Below, piece after piece: positions 3,875-37,768 of a stretch of 64,000 bases of DNA (positions within the stretch are counted from its first letter, which is position 1; each line of letters begins with the position of its first letter). The position numbers were made by a program, and so were the translations under genes. This DNA is from Rhizobium sp. Q54 (lineage in GTDB: Bacteria > Pseudomonadota > Alphaproteobacteria > UBA2966 > CAIVPW01): assembly GCA_945947575.1 (NCBI GenBank), contig CAMEYM010000001.1, forward strand, positions 30,582 to 94,581, given 5' to 3'. A model generated the notes under the pieces. That model did not search any database. It saw only the letters and a program-made list of their open reading frames with translations, and was not told the origin of the DNA.

Positions 3875-4882
3875 ATGCAGCGTAGCTTTGTTGCGGCTCT
3901 CGCCGGTGCCGCCGCCAATGTTGTTGTCGCGGCGGCCGCGTCCGCCAATCCCACAGCCTACAACGTCGCCCCACTGCTCCAAGCGCGCGATGCGTTCGCC
4001 GACCGCTTTTGGGGACTGCTGCAAGGACCGGTCGCTCCGGTGCAACCGCCCGCGACGCAGGGCCAGCTCTACGATTTCCGCCAGGTACTGGGTCAGCCGG
4101 ATCCGTTCGCGCAGCGCTTCTACGGCCAGGCCATCCCGCCGCCGCCCGCCGCGACCGCGCCGCAGGCCCGGCTCGCGCCGGCACCCGCGCCCGTTACCGC
4201 GCCTCCCACTGCCGTCCTGGCCGCGCCGGCACCGGTGCCGGTGCAGATCGTCCAGGCGCCGGCGCCTGCCGCGCGTGCGATCCCGCCGGGTCTCGCCCTC
4301 GCCGCCGCAGCCGAGCCGAGCCGCTGGTACATGTCGGGCGCCGTCGGCGCCGCCACCCTCAGCGAGGCGACCACCACGGGCGCCGCCGTCTCCAACCAGT
4401 CTGCCTACGACGTCGGTCCGGTCCTGGCGTTCGCGATCGGCAACCGGCGCAATGCCAACCTCGCCTACGAAGGCGAGTTCTCGATGCGCACGTTCGGTCT
4501 TTCGACCATCACGCCGGCGGGCGGAGCGCCCGCCTCGGCGACGGGCACCGTTTCCAACGTGGCGCTGCTCGCCAACGTCGTGTGGAACACGAACTTCGGC
4601 TGGCGCTTCAATCCGTACCTGTTGGGCGGCGCCGGCCTGGCCCAGCACAAGCTCGACGCCGTCGATGCGCCGGGCATCGTTGCCACCACCGGCGACGATC
4701 TCGTCATCGCCTATCAGTTGGGATTCGGCGCGGACTTGCCGCTAAACCAGCGCTGGTCGCTCGACACGTCCTACCGCTATTTTGCGACGCTTGCGCCGGA
4801 GTTCACCGACGCGGCCGGCAATACATTTGAAACCGCGGTCGCGAGCCACAACTTCCTAGTCGGCGCCCGTTATCGCTTCTAG
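3875..4882 (+). CDS. Outer-membrane beta-barrel protein with proline-rich N-terminal spacer
   Basis: A 335-residue protein with an alanine-rich signal peptide ending near ASA-NP. Mature residues up to about 90 contain two imperfect copies of an F-A-x-R-F-aromatic-G motif (DAFADRFWG and DPFAQRFYG), followed by a proline/alanine-rich linker. The remainder, from about SRWYMSGAVGA, looks like an OmpA/OmpW-type eight-strand barrel with alternating aromatic and glycine residues. It ends in GARYRF, the terminal-phenylalanine signature for outer-membrane insertion. The ORF track starts at 3830; ATG 3875 is chosen because it begins the signal peptide. Ligand and function are unknown. Confidence 0.75.
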   Translation: MQRSFVAALAGAAANVVVAAAASANPTAYNVAPLLQARDAFADRFWGLLQGPVAPVQPPATQGQLYDFRQVLGQPDPFAQRFYGQAIPPPPAATAPQARLAPAPAPVTAPPTAVLAAPAPVPVQIVQAPAPAARAIPPGLALAAAAEPSRWYMSGAVGAATLSEATTTGAAVSNQSAYDVGPVLAFAIGNRRNANLAYEGEFSMRTFGLSTITPAGGAPASATGTVSNVALLANVVWNTNFGWRFNPYLLGGAGLAQHKLDAVDAPGIVATTGDDLVIAYQLGFGADLPLNQRWSLDTSYRYFATLAPEFTDAAGNTFETAVASHNFLVGARYRF

Positions 4883-27704: not shown

Positions 27705-27859
27705 AATAGTGCGAAGGCGTTGCGCGGCTGGGACGGCCTGAGAAACAAGCGGGCCATATTTCCCGTTATTTCCCCGCATTCACCGTACTTCGTAGAGAAA
27801 TTCTCGAATCGTATCGAGCCCTCACATTCCTACATAAAGATTTCCTTATGCTTCGTGCG

Positions 27860-27904
27860 GGCCCGTGCTATATCGGCGGCGCCCTCCAGGGGGCAGCACG
27901 GGCC
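27860..27904 (+). promoter_or_regulatory. Leader hairpin upstream of ahcY
   Basis: GGCCCGTGCT at 27860-27869 pairs perfectly with AGCACGGGCC at 27895-27904, giving a 10-bp stem around an inner GC-rich segment that can form a second small hairpin. The position, 63 bases before the ahcY ATG, is right for an RNA control element. The sequence does not match the SAH or SAM-II riboswitch patterns I know. Confidence 0.4.
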
Positions 27905-27967
27905 GACGCCAGGGCATTCAGCACGTGGCGCGCCCATTCCATTCCAGCGCAGAGAGCTGACCGCATC

Positions 27968-29323
<1,356 letters not shown>

Positions 29324-29405: not shown

Positions 29406-31181
29406 GTGTTGAGGCGAGGCGGAGCATGTGCGTGCGTGCTGGCGGGCCTGTTGGCGCCGCTTGCTTCAGCGCATGCGCAGGCCACCAGCCTCGCCGCCGC
29501 CCGCTCCGAGGCCATCGCCGCGCTGGCGCTGACCGGCGCCATCGTCCTCTCCATCATCGCGCTCGGGCTCGGCTTCCTCGTGGCCTGGCGCAGCCGCCGC
29601 CGCGCCGCCGCCGACCGCCGCCGCATCCGCGAGCTGTTCGGCACCCTGGCACGCACCACCGCCGTGCTTGACGCGGCACCCGCCGGCTTCTTCGAGTGGT
29701 CCGCGCTCTCCGGCCTCGAGACCTGCTCGTCCGGCCTCGCCCAGTCGCTGGGCGCATCGCCCGTCGCGGTGAAGACCTTCCGCGACCTGTCGCCCTACTT
29801 CACCGAGACCGACTTCGCCATGCTCGATGCCGCCGTCGATGCCCTGCGCGCCGAGCGCAAACCCTTCGACCGTGTCGTGCGCGCCAAGAACGGCCGCGTG
29901 CTCGAGGCGTGCGGCCGCATCGTGTTCGCCGCCGGCACCGGCGAGCCGCTGTCCTTCACCCTCTGGTTCCACGACGCCACTGCTTTCGCCGGTGACGTTG
30001 CGGTGGGCCGGGCCGCCATCGCCGCCGCCTCGGCCGAGCGCGATCGCCTCGCCGAGATCCTCAACCTCGCGCCCTTCCCGGCGTGGCGGCGCGACGCCGA
30101 CTTGCGCATCGCCTGGGTCAACCGCGCCTACGCCGCGGCGGTCGAGTCCGACCTCGGCACCATCGTCGCCAACTCGGTCGAGTTCGCCCCCGGCGCCGGC
30201 CCGCAGCAGTCGCGCTCGCTGGCCGCCATGTCGCGCGAGACCGGCGTCGCGCAGACCGACACGCGCCGCTTCAACGCCGCCGGCGAGCGCCGCGTCTACG
30301 AGATCACCGAGGCGTCTCTGTCCGACGGCGGCGCCATGGGCTTCGCTCGCGACGTCACGGCCCGCGAGGAAGCGCACGCCGAGCTGAAGCGCCACACCCA
30401 GGCCCACGCCGCGGTCATGGACCGTCTGCGCTCGGCCATCGCCATCTTCGGCCCCGATCGCAAGCTGCGCTTCTTCAACGAGGCCTACTTCCGCCTGTGG
30501 AAGCTCGACGAGCCGTGGCTGCAGACCGGCCCCAGCCACGCCGAGATCCTCGAAGTGTTGCGCGAGGCGCGCCGCATCCCCGAGGCTGCCGACTTCCGCG
30601 CCTACAAGTCCCAGGTGATGGGCCTGTACGCCTCGGTGCTGGCGCCCGAGGAAGAGGTGCAGCACCTCCCCGACGGCCGCACCCTGCGCGTCATCACGTC
30701 GCCGCATCCCTTCGGCGGCCTGATGTTCCTCTACGAGGACGTCTCCGACCGCCTCGAGCTCGAACGCGCCCGCAACACGCTCGCCGAGGTGCAGCGCGCC
30801 ACCTTCGACCACCTGTTCGAGGGCGTGGCCGTGTTCGGCGGCGACGGCCGCCTGAAGCTCTACAACAAGCGCTTCGCGTCCCTGTGGGCACTGGAGGAAA
30901 TGTTCCTCAAGTCCGAGCCCCACGTCGCCGACGTCGCCGAGCGGTGCCGCGACCTGTTCCCGCACGGGGGCGCGCCGTGGCCGGTGCTGAAGGACAAGAT
31001 CGTCAGCCGCGCCCTCGACCGCACCGCGCGCAACGCCCGCCTGACGCGTCCGGACGGATTGGTGGTGCAGTACGCTTCGGTACCGCTGCCGGACGGCAAC
31101 ACCCTCTACACCTACCTCGACATCAGCGAGGAGCGTCCGGCATCGGTGACTCACCGGAGGGGAGCCGCGGGCGCCAGCTGA
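29406..31181 (+). CDS. Multi-PAS membrane protein related to a sensor histidine kinase but lacking the kinase domain
   Basis: A 591-residue protein with a signal/transmembrane N-terminus (helix about 37-58) and at least three or four PAS-like modules. These include FAPFPAWRRDADLRIAWVNRAYA-type, FNEAYFRLWKLDEPWL and YNKRFASLWALEE units, the last two being the PAS-7 form seen in DivL-like kinases. Relatives continue directly into an ELRTPL phospho-acceptor helix and ATPase domain. Here the protein stops about 20 residues after the last PAS (TYLDISEE). The following DNA encodes an unrelated lipoprotein and no H box is found downstream. It could act as a signal-sensing scaffold or be a degraded kinase. 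Confidence 0.7.
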   Translation: MLRRGGACACVLAGLLAPLASAHAQATSLAAARSEAIAALALTGAIVLSIIALGLGFLVAWRSRRRAAADRRRIRELFGTLARTTAVLDAAPAGFFEWSALSGLETCSSGLAQSLGASPVAVKTFRDLSPYFTETDFAMLDAAVDALRAERKPFDRVVRAKNGRVLEACGRIVFAAGTGEPLSFTLWFHDATAFAGDVAVGRAAIAAASAERDRLAEILNLAPFPAWRRDADLRIAWVNRAYAAAVESDLGTIVANSVEFAPGAGPQQSRSLAAMSRETGVAQTDTRRFNAAGERRVYEITEASLSDGGAMGFARDVTAREEAHAELKRHTQAHAAVMDRLRSAIAIFGPDRKLRFFNEAYFRLWKLDEPWLQTGPSHAEILEVLREARRIPEAADFRAYKSQVMGLYASVLAPEEEVQHLPDGRTLRVITSPHPFGGLMFLYEDVSDRLELERARNTLAEVQRATFDHLFEGVAVFGGDGRLKLYNKRFASLWALEEMFLKSEPHVADVAERCRDLFPHGGAPWPVLKDKIVSRALDRTARNARLTRPDGLVVQYASVPLPDGNTLYTYLDISEERPASVTHRRGAAGAS

Positions 31182-31237
31182 CGGGACTACTCCCGAAGGG
31201 CGCCCCGGGCCCGCTCGAGCCCGCGCTAGGCTCCGGC

Positions 31238-31621
31238 ATGCGCCCAATCCTCGTCGGCCTCGCCATCCTGGCTCTCAGCGGCTGCGCCGCCGTGGGAGGT
31301 CCGGTTCGGCTCGCCACGGGCGTCGAGGTCCCGTGTGATCTGCCCGCCGAGGAGCTGCGCAACCTGCGCGGCCGCACCAGCGCCATGGAGCGCCTCGAGA
31401 AGGCGGAGCTGAGCCGCTCCCTGGCCCTCGTCGATGCCGCCGCGATCCTCGGTGGCGACGTGCGCGCCATCCGCCAGGGCCTGATCGACCGCTCCAACGC
31501 CAACCTGCGCTTGGCCATCGGCCTCGAAGCCGACATCGCCTGCGGCTACGCCGCGCCGCGTGCGCCGCTCGCCCAACCGGCACAGGCGTTGCGCCCCGCC
31601 ATTCCCACCGTCCGCATTTGA
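31238..31621 (+). CDS. Small lipoprotein, function unknown
   Basis: A 127-residue protein with a short lipoprotein signal, ILALSGC, giving the lipidated cysteine at residue 16. The mature part is mostly helical and charged (LRNLRGRTSAMERLEKAELSRSLALVDAAAIL), suggesting a coiled-coil-like rod. No partner or domain was recognised. The ORF track hides it inside a longer shadow frame; ATG 31238 starts the signal peptide. It ends directly at the AAGGAG ribosome site of the next gene. Confidence 0.6.
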   Translation: MRPILVGLAILALSGCAAVGGPVRLATGVEVPCDLPAEELRNLRGRTSAMERLEKAELSRSLALVDAAAILGGDVRAIRQGLIDRSNANLRLAIGLEADIACGYAAPRAPLAQPAQALRPAIPTVRI

Positions 31622-31631
31622 AGGAGCCCCC

Positions 31632-31883
31632 GTGGTCATCAACAAGAACAACAACCCGGTGTGGCTTGCCGCCGGCATCGCGCTGGGCATGCTGATCGGG
31701 GTCAGCATCCGCACCACACCCGTGGTAGCCGATCAAGGCACCTACTCCGCCGGCAACTGGGTCGTGGTGGACGTGACGGGCGAGGCGCCGAACCGCGAAG
31801 TGGTGCGCTACAACGCCGCGACCGGCGTCATGCATCTGTGCAACTTCACGACACTAACCTGCGGCAACACCTTGTTGCCGTAG
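31632..31883 (+). CDS. Short membrane-anchored hypothetical protein
   Basis: An 83-residue protein starting at GTG 31632, with an ideal AAGGAG six bases upstream formed over the stop of the preceding lipoprotein gene. Residues 9-27 are a hydrophobic segment (VWLAAGIALGMLIGVSI). The remaining exported part has two cysteines (LCNFTTLTC) near the C-terminus. Tight spacing implies co-transcription with the lipoprotein. I do not recognise it. Confidence 0.55.
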   Translation: MVINKNNNPVWLAAGIALGMLIGVSIRTTPVVADQGTYSAGNWVVVDVTGEAPNREVVRYNAATGVMHLCNFTTLTCGNTLLP

Positions 31884-32469: not shown

Positions 32470-33516
32470 TCAATTCGCGCCCGGTACGCCCTTCGAGGTC
32501 GAGTACTCGAAGTGCAGCGCCTTGTCGGGGTTGAGGATGGGGTGGATGGCGTGGGCAGCCTGTGCAGCCTCGGCGAAGCCCGACAAAATGAGCTTCAGCT
32601 TGCCCGGATAGGTGGCGATGTCGCCGACCGCGAACACACCGTGCAGGTTGGTGGCGCACGTCGCCGGATCCACGACGATGTGCTTCATCTGGTCCAGCGT
32701 GATGCCCCACTCGGCGATCGGGCCGAGGTTGTTGACGAGTCCGAAGAACGCCAGCACCACGTCTGCGTCGAGCGCCTTCTCCTCGCCATCCAGGGTCGCG
32801 ACCTTGACGGCACTGAGGTGCCCGCCTTGGCCTTCGAGACCGGACAGCTGATAGGGGATGACCATCTCGATGGCGCCGCTCGCCGCAAGCTCGTGCATCT
32901 TGCGCACGCTCTCGGGTGCGGCGCGGAACTTGTCGCGCCGGTGCACGACCCACACCTTGGCCGCGATGCCGGCCAGCGCCAGCGCCCAGTCCACCGCCGA
33001 GTCGCCGCCGCCGGCGATGACGACGCGCTTGCCGGCGAGGTCGCCCTTGCGTCGCACCAAGTAGAACACCGACTTGCCTTCGAACGCCTCGACACCCGGC
33101 AGCGGCAGGCGCACCGGTCCGAACGCGCCCGTACCGCCGGCGATGATGACTGCGCGCGCTTCGATGGCGGCGCCGCCGGCGATCTCGAGCCGCCAGCCGT
33201 CGTTGCTGCCGTCGGGTCGCGCGCGGATCGGCGACACGCGCAGCACCGGATGGCCGAGTCGATAGTTGGGCTTGAACGGGGCGGCCTGCTCCAGCAGGCG
33301 GTCGATCAGCTCCATCGCCATCACCGAGGGGTAGCCGGGGATGTCGTAGATCGGCTTCTCTGGATAGAGCGCCGCGCACTGACCGCCGGCCGTGTCGAGC
33401 ACGTCCACCACGGTCGAGCGGAAGCCCAGCATCCCGACCTCGAACACCGAGAACAGGCCAACGGGGCCTGCGCCGATGATGGCGACGTCGGTCATGACAT
33501 CTGCGTGCGCGTCCAT
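32470..33516 (-). CDS. Ferredoxin/flavodoxin-NADP+ reductase, thioredoxin-reductase-like (YumC type)
   Basis: A 348-residue flavoprotein. The FAD motif is IIGAGPVGLFS, followed by the group signature GGQCAALYPEKPIYDIPGYP. The NADPH motif is VVIAGGGDSAVDWAL. The C-terminal FAD contact is GVFAVGDIATYPGKLKLI. There is no C-x-x-C redox pair, which separates this group from true thioredoxin reductases. It moves electrons between NADPH and ferredoxin or flavodoxin. The ORF track begins at 33552; ATG 33516 has AAGGTAA upstream. It is followed closely by the EVE-like gene. Confidence 0.87.
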   Translation of the reverse strand: MDAHADVMTDVAIIGAGPVGLFSVFEVGMLGFRSTVVDVLDTAGGQCAALYPEKPIYDIPGYPSVMAMELIDRLLEQAAPFKPNYRLGHPVLRVSPIRARPDGSNDGWRLEIAGGAAIEARAVIIAGGTGAFGPVRLPLPGVEAFEGKSVFYLVRRKGDLAGKRVVIAGGGDSAVDWALALAGIAAKVWVVHRRDKFRAAPESVRKMHELAASGAIEMVIPYQLSGLEGQGGHLSAVKVATLDGEEKALDADVVLAFFGLVNNLGPIAEWGITLDQMKHIVVDPATCATNLHGVFAVGDIATYPGKLKLILSGFAEAAQAAHAIHPILNPDKALHFEYSTSKGVPGAN

Positions 33517-33579
33517 CGGGTTACCTTGTAGGCAAGCGTAGGCGCCGCGCAAGGCCGCGCGGCGGGGCCCAGAGCGGGC

Positions 33580-34221
33580 CTAATTCCCCCAGTAGAACGT
33601 GCTGAAAAGGCGCAGGAAGTCGATGCGCCGCGCGTTGAACGCTGCGTCGGCCGCCTTCAGGTCGGCGCCCGTGGTCGCACAGGTCACGTGCCAGACGCGC
33701 CCGGGCGGCGTGCGCACCAGGAACATCATCATCACCGTCGGTTGCTGCGCCCTGGTGTCAGTGGCGGCGATCATCGACACGCGCGCCGGCAGGTTGCCGA
33801 TCTTGGTGGGAAGGAGGTCGCGCACCTCTACGTTGGTGTAGCGCGCCGCCGGCAGCCCTTCGGCCATATGCTCGTTGAAGGTCGGGTGGTTGTTCATGCC
33901 CCAATCGAGCTGCGGTTGGGTCAGGCCCCAATACTCATCGACGTCGCGCAGGATGACCTGACAGCTCGCCGGGTTCGGACCCGGTGGCGAGTAGAGCACC
34001 GTCTTGACGGTCGGCTCGGTCGCCTCGCCCACGACCCAGTCGGCCGGGTGCGCCAGGCGGAAGCCGAACTCGGCATTGCGCAGGCTGCGCTGGCCAACGG
34101 CCTGAGCGAGCTGCACGCCCTGTGGTGCGCCCACCGCGGGTGCGGCGTACTCGGCCGTCACCGCCGGTGGGGCGCATAGGGCCACAGCGACGGCCAACAG
34201 GGATGCATGGCGTGCGTCCAT
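33580..34221 (-). CDS. Secreted hypothetical protein
   Basis: A 213-residue protein with a signal peptide (SLLAVAVALCAPPAVTA, cleaved near EYA). The mature part begins a FGFRLAHPADW segment like those opening PsbP/DUF1795-type folds and contains two cysteines (ASCQVIL and VTCATTG). That fold suggestion is weak and no function follows from it. The ORF track begins at 34257; ATG 34221 starts the signal sequence. It is divergent from tsaE, with 89 bases between the starts. Confidence 0.55.
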   Translation of the reverse strand: MDARHASLLAVAVALCAPPAVTAEYAAPAVGAPQGVQLAQAVGQRSLRNAEFGFRLAHPADWVVGEATEPTVKTVLYSPPGPNPASCQVILRDVDEYWGLTQPQLDWGMNNHPTFNEHMAEGLPAARYTNVEVRDLLPTKIGNLPARVSMIAATDTRAQQPTVMMMFLVRTPPGRVWHVTCATTGADLKAADAAFNARRIDFLRLFSTFYWGN

Positions 34222-34310
34222 TGCGCGTAGCTTGGCCGGGCGCGCGCGCAGGCGCAAGACCCGCCGAATCGGGCTACAAACAGGGCGGGGGACGGGCGTC
34301 TCAGCGCACC

Positions 34311-34766
34311 ATGCACGTGAATCTGCGCAATTTGGATGACACCGAGCGCCTTGCGGCGCGCGTCGCCGTGCGGGCGCTGGCCGGCGACTTCATCGGCCTG
34401 TCCGGCCCGCTCGGCGCCGGCAAGACGGCGTTCGCCCGCGCCTTCCTGATGGCGATGGCGGCACGCCAGAGGGTGCCGGCACCGGCGGAGGTGCCGAGTC
34501 CGACCTTCACGCTGGTGCAGAGCTACCAGCTCGGCGCCATCGAAGTGGCGCACTACGACCTCTATCGCATCAACTCGCCCGAGGAAGCGGCCGAGCTCGG
34601 CCTCGATGAGGCGCATGCGCGCGGCATCGTCCTGGTCGAATGGCCCGAGCGCCTCGGCGATCGTCTGCCGCGCGACCGCCTCGATATCGCGCTGTCCGTG
34701 GACGCAACCGAGCAGCGCCAGGCGACCCTGACCACGCACGGCACGTGGCGGACGCGCGCCCTATGA
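34311..34766 (+). CDS. tsaE: tRNA threonylcarbamoyladenosine biosynthesis ATPase TsaE
   Basis: A 151-residue ATPase of the TsaBDE complex that makes t6A37 in ANN-decoding tRNAs. Walker A is GLSGPLGAGKTAFARAFL; the family signature VPSPTFTLVQSY is followed by VAHYDLYRI and LVEWPERLGDRLP. The ORF track begins upstream at 34122; ATG 34311 gives the family start. Its stop overlaps the addB ATG (ATGA). In related genomes MurNAc-recycling genes (amgK, murU) often lie between tsaE and addB; here they are absent. Confidence 0.93.
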   Translation: MHVNLRNLDDTERLAARVAVRALAGDFIGLSGPLGAGKTAFARAFLMAMAARQRVPAPAEVPSPTFTLVQSYQLGAIEVAHYDLYRINSPEEAAELGLDEAHARGIVLVEWPERLGDRLPRDRLDIALSVDATEQRQATLTTHGTWRTRAL

Positions 34767-37700
34767 ATCCGACCCCGACGGTCTTCAACGTCCCGCCCGG
34801 CGTCGCCTTCGTCGACGCGCTGGTCGCCGGCATCCGCGCCAGGCACGGCATCGACCCGATCGCGCTCAGCGGTGTCACCGTGTTGCTGCCGACGCGCCGC
34901 GCCTGCCGTGCCTTGCGTGACGCCTTCCTGCGCCTGTCCAACGGCCGCCCGACGCTGCTGCCGGTTATGCGTCCCATCGGCGACGTCGAGGAGGACGAAC
35001 TGGCGCTCGCGCTCGGCGAGCAGGATTGGGAGGGGGACGATCCGCGCGCAACGCTGGATCTTGCGCCGGCTCTCTCGCCCCTGCGGCGGCGCCTGCTGCT
35101 GTCGCGCCTGGTGCTCGCCAGCCGTCCCGACACGCCGCCCGACCAAGCGTTGTTCCTAGCGGGCGAACTCGCACGCTTGCTGGACCAGATGCAGATCGAG
35201 GAGGTCTCGTTCGACGCGCTGCATGGAATCGTGCGGCCCGACCTCGCCGAGCATTGGCAGAAGATCCTGACCTTCCTCGAGATCCTGTCGCACGCTTGGC
35301 CCGCCATTCTGCAGTCGGAGGGCATGCAGGATCCCGCGGTGCGGCGCAGCAAGCTGCTCGACGCGCAGGCCAAGGCGTGGGGGCGCCAACCACCGCACGG
35401 ACCTGTGATCGCCGCCGGTTCGACCGGCACCGTACCAGCTACCGCGCGCCTGCTGCGCGTGATCGGACGTCTGCCGCAGGGTTGCATCGTGCTGCCGGGC
35501 CTCGACGGCGCCATGTCCGAGGCGGTGTGGGAGCAAATCGATCCGACTCACCCGCAATTCGCTATGAAGCATCTCCTCGATCGCCTGGGTGTTGCGCGCG
35601 GTGCGGTGCAGGATTGGCCGTCCGGCCTTGGCCTCGCGTCGTCACCCGCGCGGATTGCGTTGCTCGCCGAGGCGTTGAAGCCGCCGCCGGCGTGGGCCGA
35701 GCCATCGCCCGTGCGCATCGATGCGGCAGCCTGCGCGGGAGTGCATCGCCTCGACTGCGCCAATCCCGAAGAAGAAGCGCGCGCCGTCGCCCTCGCCATG
35801 CGCGAGGCCCTCGAGACCGAGGGACGCACGGCGGCGCTAGTCACACCCGATCGCGGCTTGGCGCGGCGCGTCACCGCCGAGCTCGCGCGCTGGGACTTGG
35901 CGGTGGATGACTCCGCGGGCACGCCGCTTGGTCTCACACCGGCCGGAACGTTCCTGCGCCTCACGGCGGTGATGATCGCGGACCGGCTCCCGCCGGTCGC
36001 ATTGCTGGCGGCGTTGAAGCATCCGCTCGCCGCCGGCGGCGGCGAAGCGTGGAAGTTCCGCCGACTCGCACGACGCCTCGATCGCACCGTGCTGCGCGGT
36101 CCGCGCCCCGCGCCCGGCTTCGCCGGACTGCAGCGCGCCGTCGATCTGCTGCCCAAGGAGGCCGCCGAGACCGCAGCAGAACTGCGCCCCTGGCTCGCGC
36201 ACCTCGCCGCCCTCGCCGCCCCGTTCGCGGCCGTGATCGAACAGGCCGATGTCGAGCTTCCCGCGCTGCTGCGCACCCATGTGCGCTTGGCGGAAGCGCT
36301 CGCCGCTGACTCGGACAAGGCCGACGCTGGCCTGCGGCTGTGGGCCAACGAGGACGGCGAGGCCGCCGCCGTGTGGCTCGAGGAGTTGTTGCGCGTCGCG
36401 GCGGGAGATACTGCGCCGCGGTTCGACGGCCGCCACTACCCGCGTGTGCTCGCCGAGCTGATGGCGGGAGTCACGGTCCGCCCGCGCTACGCAAAGCATC
36501 CGCGGCTGCACATCTGGGGTCCGTTGGAAGCGCGCTTGCAGCAGGCCGACGTGGTGATCCTCGCTGGCCTGAACGAAGGTACGTGGCCGCCCGATGTATC
36601 GACCGACGCGTGGATGTCGCGGCCGATGCGTCACAAAGCCGGCCTGCCCGTGCCCGAACGGCGGGTCGGCCTTGCCGCCCATGACTTCGTCCAGGCCGCC
36701 GCGGCGCCGCTCGTGTTGCTGACGCGCTCGACCAAGGTCGATGGCGCGCCGACCGTGCCGTCGCGCTGGCTCGACCGTCTGCAGGCGGTGCTCGGCGCCA
36801 ACGCCCTCACCCTTCCCAGCGTGCACTGGCTCGACTGGCAGCGGAAGTTGGTCGACCCCGAGCGGGTGAATCCGCTGCCCGCCCCGGCGCCACGGCCGCC
36901 GGTTAGCAAGCGGCCGCGGGCGATGTCTGCCACCACTATCGAAAAGTGGGTGCGCGATCCGTACGAGATCTATGCAAAGCACGTTCTGCGCCTCAGGGCC
37001 CTCGACAAGATCGACGAGGACCCCGGCGCGCGCGAGCGCGGCCAGGTCATCCACGACGCGATCGACAGGTTCCTCAAGTGTGGCATCGACGCGCGCGCGC
37101 CCGAGGCCTTGGCGCAGATGATCGAGTCGGGCCGCATGGCGTTCGACGAGCTGCTCGTGCGTCCGGGCGTCTGGGCGTTCTGGTGGCCGCGCTATCGGCG
37201 TATCGCCGAGTGGTTCATCGCAACCGAACGCGGCCGCAGCCCCGAGGCGCGCCTGGCGGCGAGCGAGATCAAGGGCAGCCTCGATATCGGCGGCTTCACC
37301 GTCAGCGCCACGGCCGATCGCATCGACCGGCGGACGGACGGCAGCCTGGTCATCATCGACTACAAGACCGGCTCGGTGCCGACCGGCCCCGAAATCGAAC
37401 GGGGCTTTGCGCCGCAGCTCCCCATCGAGGGGATGCTCGCCGCCGCCGGCGCCTTCCCCGGTGTGCCCAAGGACATCGTGGCGCAACTCTCGTTCTGGAA
37501 GCTGAGCGGCCTGCGCGAAGGTGGTGCCATCTCGTTCCCCGCCGAAACGCCCGATGAGGCCAAGGACCTCATCGACAAGTTGACGGAAGGGCTGCGCGCT
37601 TTCATCGACGCCTTCGACGATCCGAACATGCCGTACCGCTCGCGGCCGCGGCCCGAGTTCGGTCCGCGCTATTCGGATTACGACCACCTGGCGCGCGTGC

Positions 37701-37768
37701 GCGAATGGTCGGCCGGTCCCGGCGAGGACGACGTCATCGCCCTGGTGCCGCTGCAGGGGCCGCGGTGA
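34763..37768 (+). CDS. addB: AddB-type double-strand break repair nuclease subunit
   Basis: A 1001-residue subunit of the AddAB helicase-nuclease (the alphaproteobacterial counterpart of RecBCD). The N-terminal helicase-like part has VTVLLPTRRACRALRDAF in place of a perfect Walker A, normal for AddB. WGPLEARLQQADVVILAGLNEGTWPP is a family landmark. The C-terminal PD-(D/E)xK nuclease contains TADRIDRRTDGSLVIIDYKTG. No iron-sulfur cysteine cluster is evident around the nuclease, as usual for this lineage. It overlaps tsaE by four bases and addA by four bases. The longer track start at 34640 lies inside tsaE. Confidence 0.93.
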   Translation: MNPTPTVFNVPPGVAFVDALVAGIRARHGIDPIALSGVTVLLPTRRACRALRDAFLRLSNGRPTLLPVMRPIGDVEEDELALALGEQDWEGDDPRATLDLAPALSPLRRRLLLSRLVLASRPDTPPDQALFLAGELARLLDQMQIEEVSFDALHGIVRPDLAEHWQKILTFLEILSHAWPAILQSEGMQDPAVRRSKLLDAQAKAWGRQPPHGPVIAAGSTGTVPATARLLRVIGRLPQGCIVLPGLDGAMSEAVWEQIDPTHPQFAMKHLLDRLGVARGAVQDWPSGLGLASSPARIALLAEALKPPPAWAEPSPVRIDAAACAGVHRLDCANPEEEARAVALAMREALETEGRTAALVTPDRGLARRVTAELARWDLAVDDSAGTPLGLTPAGTFLRLTAVMIADRLPPVALLAALKHPLAAGGGEAWKFRRLARRLDRTVLRGPRPAPGFAGLQRAVDLLPKEAAETAAELRPWLAHLAALAAPFAAVIEQADVELPALLRTHVRLAEALAADSDKADAGLRLWANEDGEAAAVWLEELLRVAAGDTAPRFDGRHYPRVLAELMAGVTVRPRYAKHPRLHIWGPLEARLQQADVVILAGLNEGTWPPDVSTDAWMSRPMRHKAGLPVPERRVGLAAHDFVQAAAAPLVLLTRSTKVDGAPTVPSRWLDRLQAVLGANALTLPSVHWLDWQRKLVDPERVNPLPAPAPRPPVSKRPRAMSATTIEKWVRDPYEIYAKHVLRLRALDKIDEDPGARERGQVIHDAIDRFLKCGIDARAPEALAQMIESGRMAFDELLVRPGVWAFWWPRYRRIAEWFIATERGRSPEARLAASEIKGSLDIGGFTVSATADRIDRRTDGSLVIIDYKTGSVPTGPEIERGFAPQLPIEGMLAAAGAFPGVPKDIVAQLSFWKLSGLREGGAISFPAETPDEAKDLIDKLTEGLRAFIDAFDDPNMPYRSRPRPEFGPRYSDYDHLARVREWSAGPGEDDVIALVPLQGPR

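What the first reader, a model, noticed from the sequence alone, without database searches (positions are those of the whole stretch)
29406..31181. PAS-module protein after ahcY that has lost its histidine kinase half
The last two PAS units look like those of DivL-like kinases encoded near ahcY in other alphaproteobacteria, but the protein ends where the dimerisation/His helix should begin. No ELRTPL-like motif occurs downstream in any frame that I read. It may be a kinase-less sensor scaffold in cell-cycle signalling or a remnant.
Basis: partly seen in the sequence, partly recalled or inferred. Interest (0 to 1): 0.55.

Follow-up and report, generated by a model that had tools for sequence, protein, structure and literature searches.

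The report
DivL cell-cycle protein without its pseudokinase
This gene encodes a shortened but intact DivL, a bacterial cell-cycle regulator that kept its membrane anchor and four PAS sensor domains but lost its kinase-like half, in a lineage that also lost DivK, the protein that half binds; such short DivLs were already known, so this is a new case rather than a new kind.

Summary
The ORF at 29406-31181 (591 aa) has an N-terminal transmembrane helix and four PAS folds, and it stops 16 residues after the last PAS fold. No histidine-kinase segment lies downstream.

Syntenic full-length orthologs (ahcY-divL-fpr-tsaE-addB) are DivL: most have Tyr in place of the kinase His, and the best PDB match is DivL 4Q20. 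All seven sampled relatives in three of the family's four genera lack the pseudokinase half; one genus (G005) keeps it. The short gene is constrained (dN/dS 0.15-0.31 within the genus), so it is not a remnant.

CckA, ChpT and CtrA are encoded in the genome (its ChpT frame is interrupted). DivK, which docks on the lost half, is absent, cleanly missing between a DUF3572-like gene and pleD. Among 159 class-wide genomes with a classified DivL, 14 of 15 short DivLs occur without DivK, against 29 of 144 long ones.

This co-loss was published for Rhodobacterales. The window is a new, separate case of a known kind. The most interesting by-product is genus g5 of the same order, with short DivL but an intact, syntenic DivK, against the published rule. 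Function is inferred: a membrane PAS scaffold acting on CckA without DivK control.

The parts
29406..31181 (+). divL, short form (591 aa): N-terminal membrane anchor plus four PAS domains, no DHp-CA pseudokinase half
29517..29588 (+). Predicted transmembrane helix (about residues 38-61), preceded by a signal-like stretch and followed by a helix to about residue 90
   Evidence: hydropathy; helix 29-90 in the model
29685..29975 (+). PAS fold 1 (residues about 94-190)
   Evidence: AlphaFold2 secondary structure
30081..30353 (+). PAS fold 2 (residues about 226-316; Pfam PAS_4)
30435..30740 (+). PAS fold 3 (residues about 344-445; Pfam PAS_7)
30822..31121 (+). PAS fold 4 (residues about 473-572), ending LPDGNTLYTYLDISE
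31131..31181 (+). Truncation point: 16-residue unconserved tail and stop where full-length DivL continues into the coiled coil and Tyr-ELRTPL DHp domain
   Evidence: no remnant downstream
27848..29323 (+). ahcY (S-adenosylhomocysteine hydrolase), conserved upstream neighbour of divL
32470..33552 (-). FAD-dependent NAD(P)H oxidoreductase, ferredoxin--NADP reductase-like ('fpr'; named from the translated sequence), conserved downstream neighbour
34122..37768 (+). tsaE then addB-like gene (overlapping open frames), conserved downstream neighbours completing the locus

Best explanation
The gene is the divL ortholog of this alphaproteobacterium, reduced to membrane anchor plus four PAS domains. The ancestral protein had a C-terminal DHp-CA pseudokinase (Tyr in place of His) whose known role in Caulobacter is docking of DivK~P. 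[quoted passage not shown] The most likely mechanism: the membrane-anchored PAS array contacts and stimulates CckA, the PAS-mediated function of DivL, so CckA/CtrA control no longer receives a DivJ/PleC-DivK input and must rely on PAS ligands, c-di-GMP or other partners. Shown here: orthology, truncation, constraint, co-absence of DivK, presence of CckA/ChpT/CtrA genes. Inferred: physical action on CckA, sense of regulation, the PAS signal.
For: Full-length orthologs at the same locus carry Tyr-ELRTPL plus HATPase_c, and the G015 one hits DivL 4Q20 best. All seven sampled genomes in three genera of the family are short; G005 is full. dN/dS within the genus is 0.15-0.31; ahcY 0.08-0.18 and pleD 0.11-0.21 against the same three genomes. 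No HK remnant downstream. DivK is absent from G000-G004, G006 and G007 but 68% identical to Caulobacter DivK in G005. At the syntenic site DUF3572-like gene-divK-pleD of G005, G000 has the DUF3572-like gene directly followed by pleD. CtrA 74% identical, ChpT and CckA with PAS-PAS-PAS-HisKA-HATPase-REC and HDFNNLLTAIIGYSDLLL are in the same genome; the sister genus g6, without ChpT and CtrA hits, has no divL or a decayed one. Class census: short DivL 14 without/1 with DivK, long 29/115, p=2e-8; by family 8/1 against 12/56, p=5e-5. Literature: DivL PAS domains are needed for CckA binding and HisKA/CA is the proposed DivK~P dock (PMC11500502); phosphorylation and the CA domain are dispensable in Caulobacter (PMC4211667).
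Against: No experiment on this organism. DivL-CckA interaction was not modelled. In the window's own genome chpT is read in two frames, a sequencing error or real damage to the relay. In genus g5 DivL is short although DivK is present, so DivK loss is not required for truncation.
Confidence: 0.82

Rival explanations
1. It is a decaying remnant of divL, kept by chance after the CtrA circuit lost importance.
For: The kinase half is gone. In the sister genus g6 divL does look decayed or absent (G012 short and diverging in the last PAS; G010, G013 no hit), together with missing ChpT and CtrA.
Against: In the window's family the short ORF is intact in all genomes where it lies wholly inside a contig, with dN/dS 0.15-0.31 within the genus and many invariant PAS positions over 11 orthologs. 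CckA and CtrA are present and intact in the same genome and ChpT is found in all five genomes of the genus.
Confidence: 0.05
2. The kinase half still exists as a separate or frameshifted gene and works in trans with the PAS half.
For: Other HKs with DHp-CA similarity to DivL exist in the genome (best 210 bits, G000:C13).
Against: No match to the DivL kinase half beyond noise downstream of the gene. The best HKs elsewhere in G000 score 189-210 bits inside large kinase ORFs, against 378-380 bits for true DivL halves in G005 and G011. DivK, the ligand of that half, is absent too.
Confidence: 0.03
3. The short PAS protein is no longer part of the CckA circuit and has become an independent PAS sensor or adaptor for another pathway.
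For: PAS arrays are versatile, and no direct evidence ties it to CckA in this lineage. A free-standing PAS protein (MopJ) acts on the Caulobacter cell cycle (PMC4432633, abstract).
Against: Presence of divL tracks the CckA-ChpT-CtrA relay within the order (missing together in g6). In Rhodobacter the PAS-only DivL is reported to act with CckA/ChpT on CtrA (PMC6363796, citing Westbye 2018, not read here).
Confidence: 0.1

Closest known systems
Caulobacter crescentus DivL (pseudokinase; PDB 4Q20 for DHp-CA)
   Same: Membrane anchor and multiple PAS domains; full-length syntenic orthologs of this gene carry the DivL-type Tyr-ELRTPL DHp and CA domains, and one tested hits 4Q20 best.
   Different: The window protein lacks DHp and CA entirely, and its genome lacks DivK.
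'Short DivL' of Rhodobacterales (R. capsulatus, R. sphaeroides; PMC2877005, PMC4211667, PMC9430884)
   Same: PAS-only DivL, DivK absent, CckA-ChpT-CtrA retained.
   Different: Apparently an independent truncation in another group: kinase-bearing relatives G005 and G011 stand beside it. PleD is kept here next to the divK gap. An Osp counterpart was not tested.
MopJ (single-domain PAS cell-cycle protein of Caulobacter; PMC4432633, abstract only)
   Same: Kinase-free PAS protein acting in CtrA control.
   Different: MopJ has a single PAS domain; this protein is a membrane-anchored four-PAS DivL ortholog.

Membership tests
DivL (orthology) | Conserved locus and end-to-end similarity of the PAS region to full-length DivL across the class | tested here: met
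   ahcY-divL with fpr/tsaE/addB in G002, G003, G005, G007, G009, G015; PAS region aligns with full-length DivL orthologs; PAS tree places it inside the order's DivL clade
DivL (orthology) | N-terminal transmembrane anchor followed by PAS domains | tested here: met
DivL (canonical, pseudokinase form) | DHp domain with Tyr (or other non-His) at the phospho-acceptor site, plus CA domain | tested here: not met
   Absent in the window protein; present in syntenic orthologs G005, G011, G015
Short DivL (PAS-only form described in Rhodobacterales) | DivL PAS region without DHp-CA | tested here: met
Short DivL (PAS-only form described in Rhodobacterales) | DivK absent from the genome | tested here: met
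   No DivK ortholog in seven kinase-less relatives including the window's genome; divK missing at the DUF3572-like gene-pleD site
Short DivL (PAS-only form described in Rhodobacterales) | CckA-ChpT-CtrA phosphorelay retained | tested here: met
   CckA, CtrA, ChpT (frame broken in the window's own genome; single HPTransfase match in each of its four congeners)
Short DivL (PAS-only form described in Rhodobacterales) | Acts on CtrA phosphorylation through CckA | not testable with these tools
   Needs genetics or biochemistry; literature for Rhodobacter only (PMC6363796)

The most novel reading that the evidence does not exclude
Loss of the DivL pseudokinase is a repeated evolutionary step that need not follow loss of DivK. 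Genus g5 of the same order (G008, G009) has a short DivL yet keeps an intact DivK at its native divK-pleD locus, so DivK there must act without its known docking domain on DivL, either on PleD/c-di-GMP only or through a rewired contact.
Probability: 0.55. Interest if true: 0.45.

Novelty: new member of a known kind. Interest (0 to 1): 0.33.

Why it matters
DivL links the DivJ/PleC-DivK polarity module to the CckA-ChpT-CtrA relay. A lineage that deleted exactly the DivK-docking half of DivL and DivK itself, but kept the PAS half under selection, is a natural separation-of-function experiment: it implies that the PAS array alone does the job that matters for CckA. Nine sampled families carry PAS-only or kinase-replaced DivL, eight of them without DivK, which extends a rule stated for Rhodobacterales across the class. 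The one counter-example genus shows where the rule can be tested.

Tried and rejected
Frameshifted or separate kinase half: no downstream match and no DivL-grade half elsewhere.

Single truncation for the whole order: disfavoured, since G011 and G005 keep the kinase; well-supported branches force two changes and the best trees need three. A single loss inside the window's family is not rejected (AU p 0.14 and 0.37), so three losses in the order is favoured but not shown.

First CckA candidates (G000:C4 HK-REC-HPt, G000:C15) were set aside after reading their sequences; the protein with the expected CckA H-box and architecture is on C33.

G011, with full DivL and no DivK hit, is not used as a counter-example: no PleD-like receiver was seen among its hits either, and the two genes are normally adjacent, so one assembly gap could explain it.

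DivK and CtrA queries for searches were Caulobacter sequences written from memory; DivK was repeated class-wide with the G005 protein.

phmmer of the short protein against PDB finds nothing, and the Foldseek hits are generic PAS proteins. The model is a single-chain prediction with pTM 0.35, so inter-domain arrangement is not interpreted.

The genome-contig search gave three same-genus records plus one distant one; the submitter label 'Rhizobium sp. Q54' on two of them was not relied on.

Full report
1. Observation. The interval 29406-31181 holds one intact ORF of 591 codons starting GTG, with a strong + strand coding signature (GC 0.71/0.52/0.93 by codon position). Pfam assigns PAS_7 (three stretches), PAS_4 and PAS_8 and no kinase domain. 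AlphaFold2 with 11 orthologs (mean pLDDT 77) gives a long N-terminal helix (29-90), which includes the hydrophobic stretch around 38-61, then four PAS folds at 94-190, 226-316, 344-445 and 473-572; confidence ends with the last PAS strand. Foldseek against PDB returns multi-PAS proteins (FixL, PpsR, DosP).

2. What it was. Homologs were found in 48 of the 61 genomes searched. Outside the truncated lineages most run on for about 250 residues with a coiled coil, a DHp motif that most often reads VSYELRTPL or VSYQLRTPL (Tyr where a kinase has His; other residues occur, for example His in G055 and Cys in G016) and an ATPase-like domain. The full-length ortholog from G015 matches DivL of Caulobacter (4Q20) best in PDB. 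Order ahcY-divL, then fpr, tsaE and addB, is conserved. The window gene is therefore divL, and the ancestral form had the pseudokinase half.

3. The loss. All five genomes of the window's genus (four read in full, one a contig-end fragment) and the genomes of two further genera of the family lack the half; the fourth genus (G005) has it. In the sister family, g5 (G008, G009) lacks it, G011 has it, and g6 has a decayed-looking gene (G012) or no hit. The PAS tree and a four-gene tree need three changes of state, with two forced by well-supported branches; one loss inside the window's family cannot be rejected. Nothing resembling the kinase half lies downstream of the short genes.

4. Not a remnant. 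Nei-Gojobori dN/dS of the short gene against congeners is 0.15, 0.18 and 0.31, compared with 0.08-0.18 for ahcY and 0.11-0.21 for pleD against the same three genomes. The counting method ignores codon bias, so values are rough, but far below 1.

5. The circuit. In the same genome CtrA is 74% identical to the Caulobacter protein, CckA has the expected PAS-PAS-PAS-HisKA-HATPase-REC architecture and H-box, and ChpT is next to ctrA. DivK, the partner of the lost half, is absent in all seven kinase-less genomes of the family and present (68%) in G005. This is not only a matter of incomplete assemblies: in G005 the order is DUF3572-like gene, divK, pleD, whereas in G000 the DUF3572-like gene is directly followed by pleD; the DUF3572 name is from memory of the family, not from a profile hit. 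Genus g6, without ChpT and CtrA hits, has also lost or is losing divL.

6. Census. In 290 class-wide genomes of at least 95% completeness, 167 have a DivL PAS region and 133 have DivK. For 159 the sequence after the last PAS was read. Short DivL (kinase half absent or replaced): 14 without DivK and 1 with; kinase-bearing: 29 without and 115 with (Fisher 2e-8). Counted once per family, 8/1 against 12/56 (5e-5). Among kinase-bearing DivLs the half scores lower against the DivL kinase profile where DivK is missing (median 222 against 340 bits, Mann-Whitney 6e-7), as expected if the half decays once DivK is gone.

7. Literature. Brilli et al. 2010 (PMC2877005) reported kinase-less DivL in Rhodobacterales, always with DivK absent. 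Childers et al. 2014 (PMC4211667) state that alphaproteobacteria lacking DivK frequently lack DHp-CA of DivL, and show that DHp-CA binds DivK~P. The 2022 mBio paper (PMC9430884) maps DivK loss before DivL truncation in Rhodobacterales and reports one species with short DivL plus a DivK thought to be horizontally acquired. The finding is thus a new instance of a known kind.

8. What is new. (a) Truncations in this order and, in the census, in several further families. [quoted passage not shown] What DivK does there is unknown.

9. Mechanism. Best-supported reading: the PAS array, anchored in the membrane, keeps the CckA-directed function of DivL, and the DivK input has been removed. Orthology, truncation, constraint and co-loss are shown; contact with CckA and the sign of regulation are inferred from Caulobacter and Rhodobacter work.

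Noticed in passing
G008 (L009, L160) and G009 (L010, L161): Short DivL together with an intact DivK in the native divK-pleD pair, an exception to the published rule that short DivL goes with absence of DivK.
   Followed up: partly
G000:C18:36949-37292 (L166), G002:C19 (L169): ChpT of the window's own genome is read in two frames; in G002 the frame also seems to change, at a different place. Assembly error or real damage to the CtrA relay could not be told apart.
   Followed up: partly
G010, G012, G013 (genus g6, same order): This genus gives no ChpT and CtrA hits, and its divL is absent or decayed: apparent loss of the whole CtrA relay.
   Followed up: partly
L248 (G138), L243 (G297), L249 (G239), L250 (G020), L251 (G063), L241 (G157), L238 (G136), L287 (G065): Further families with PAS-only DivL and no DivK; in G138 the kinase half is replaced by 171 residues with no kinase match.
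   Followed up: partly
L242 (G284), L278 (G298), L279 (G109), L274 (G112): DivK-less genomes whose DivL kinase half is still present but degenerate (low profile score, acceptor motif altered), possible intermediates toward truncation.
   Followed up: no
L153 about 4040-4060 against L158 about 4140-4160: A TCAAGGTGGTAC motif upstream of divK in G005 is also found between the DUF3572-like gene and pleD in G000, where divK is missing; possibly a shared promoter element.
   Followed up: no
window 31222-31883: Two small ORFs between divL and the next gene (a lipoprotein-like 31238-31621 and 31635-31883) are found downstream of divL only in G002 and G003 among the compared loci.
   Followed up: no
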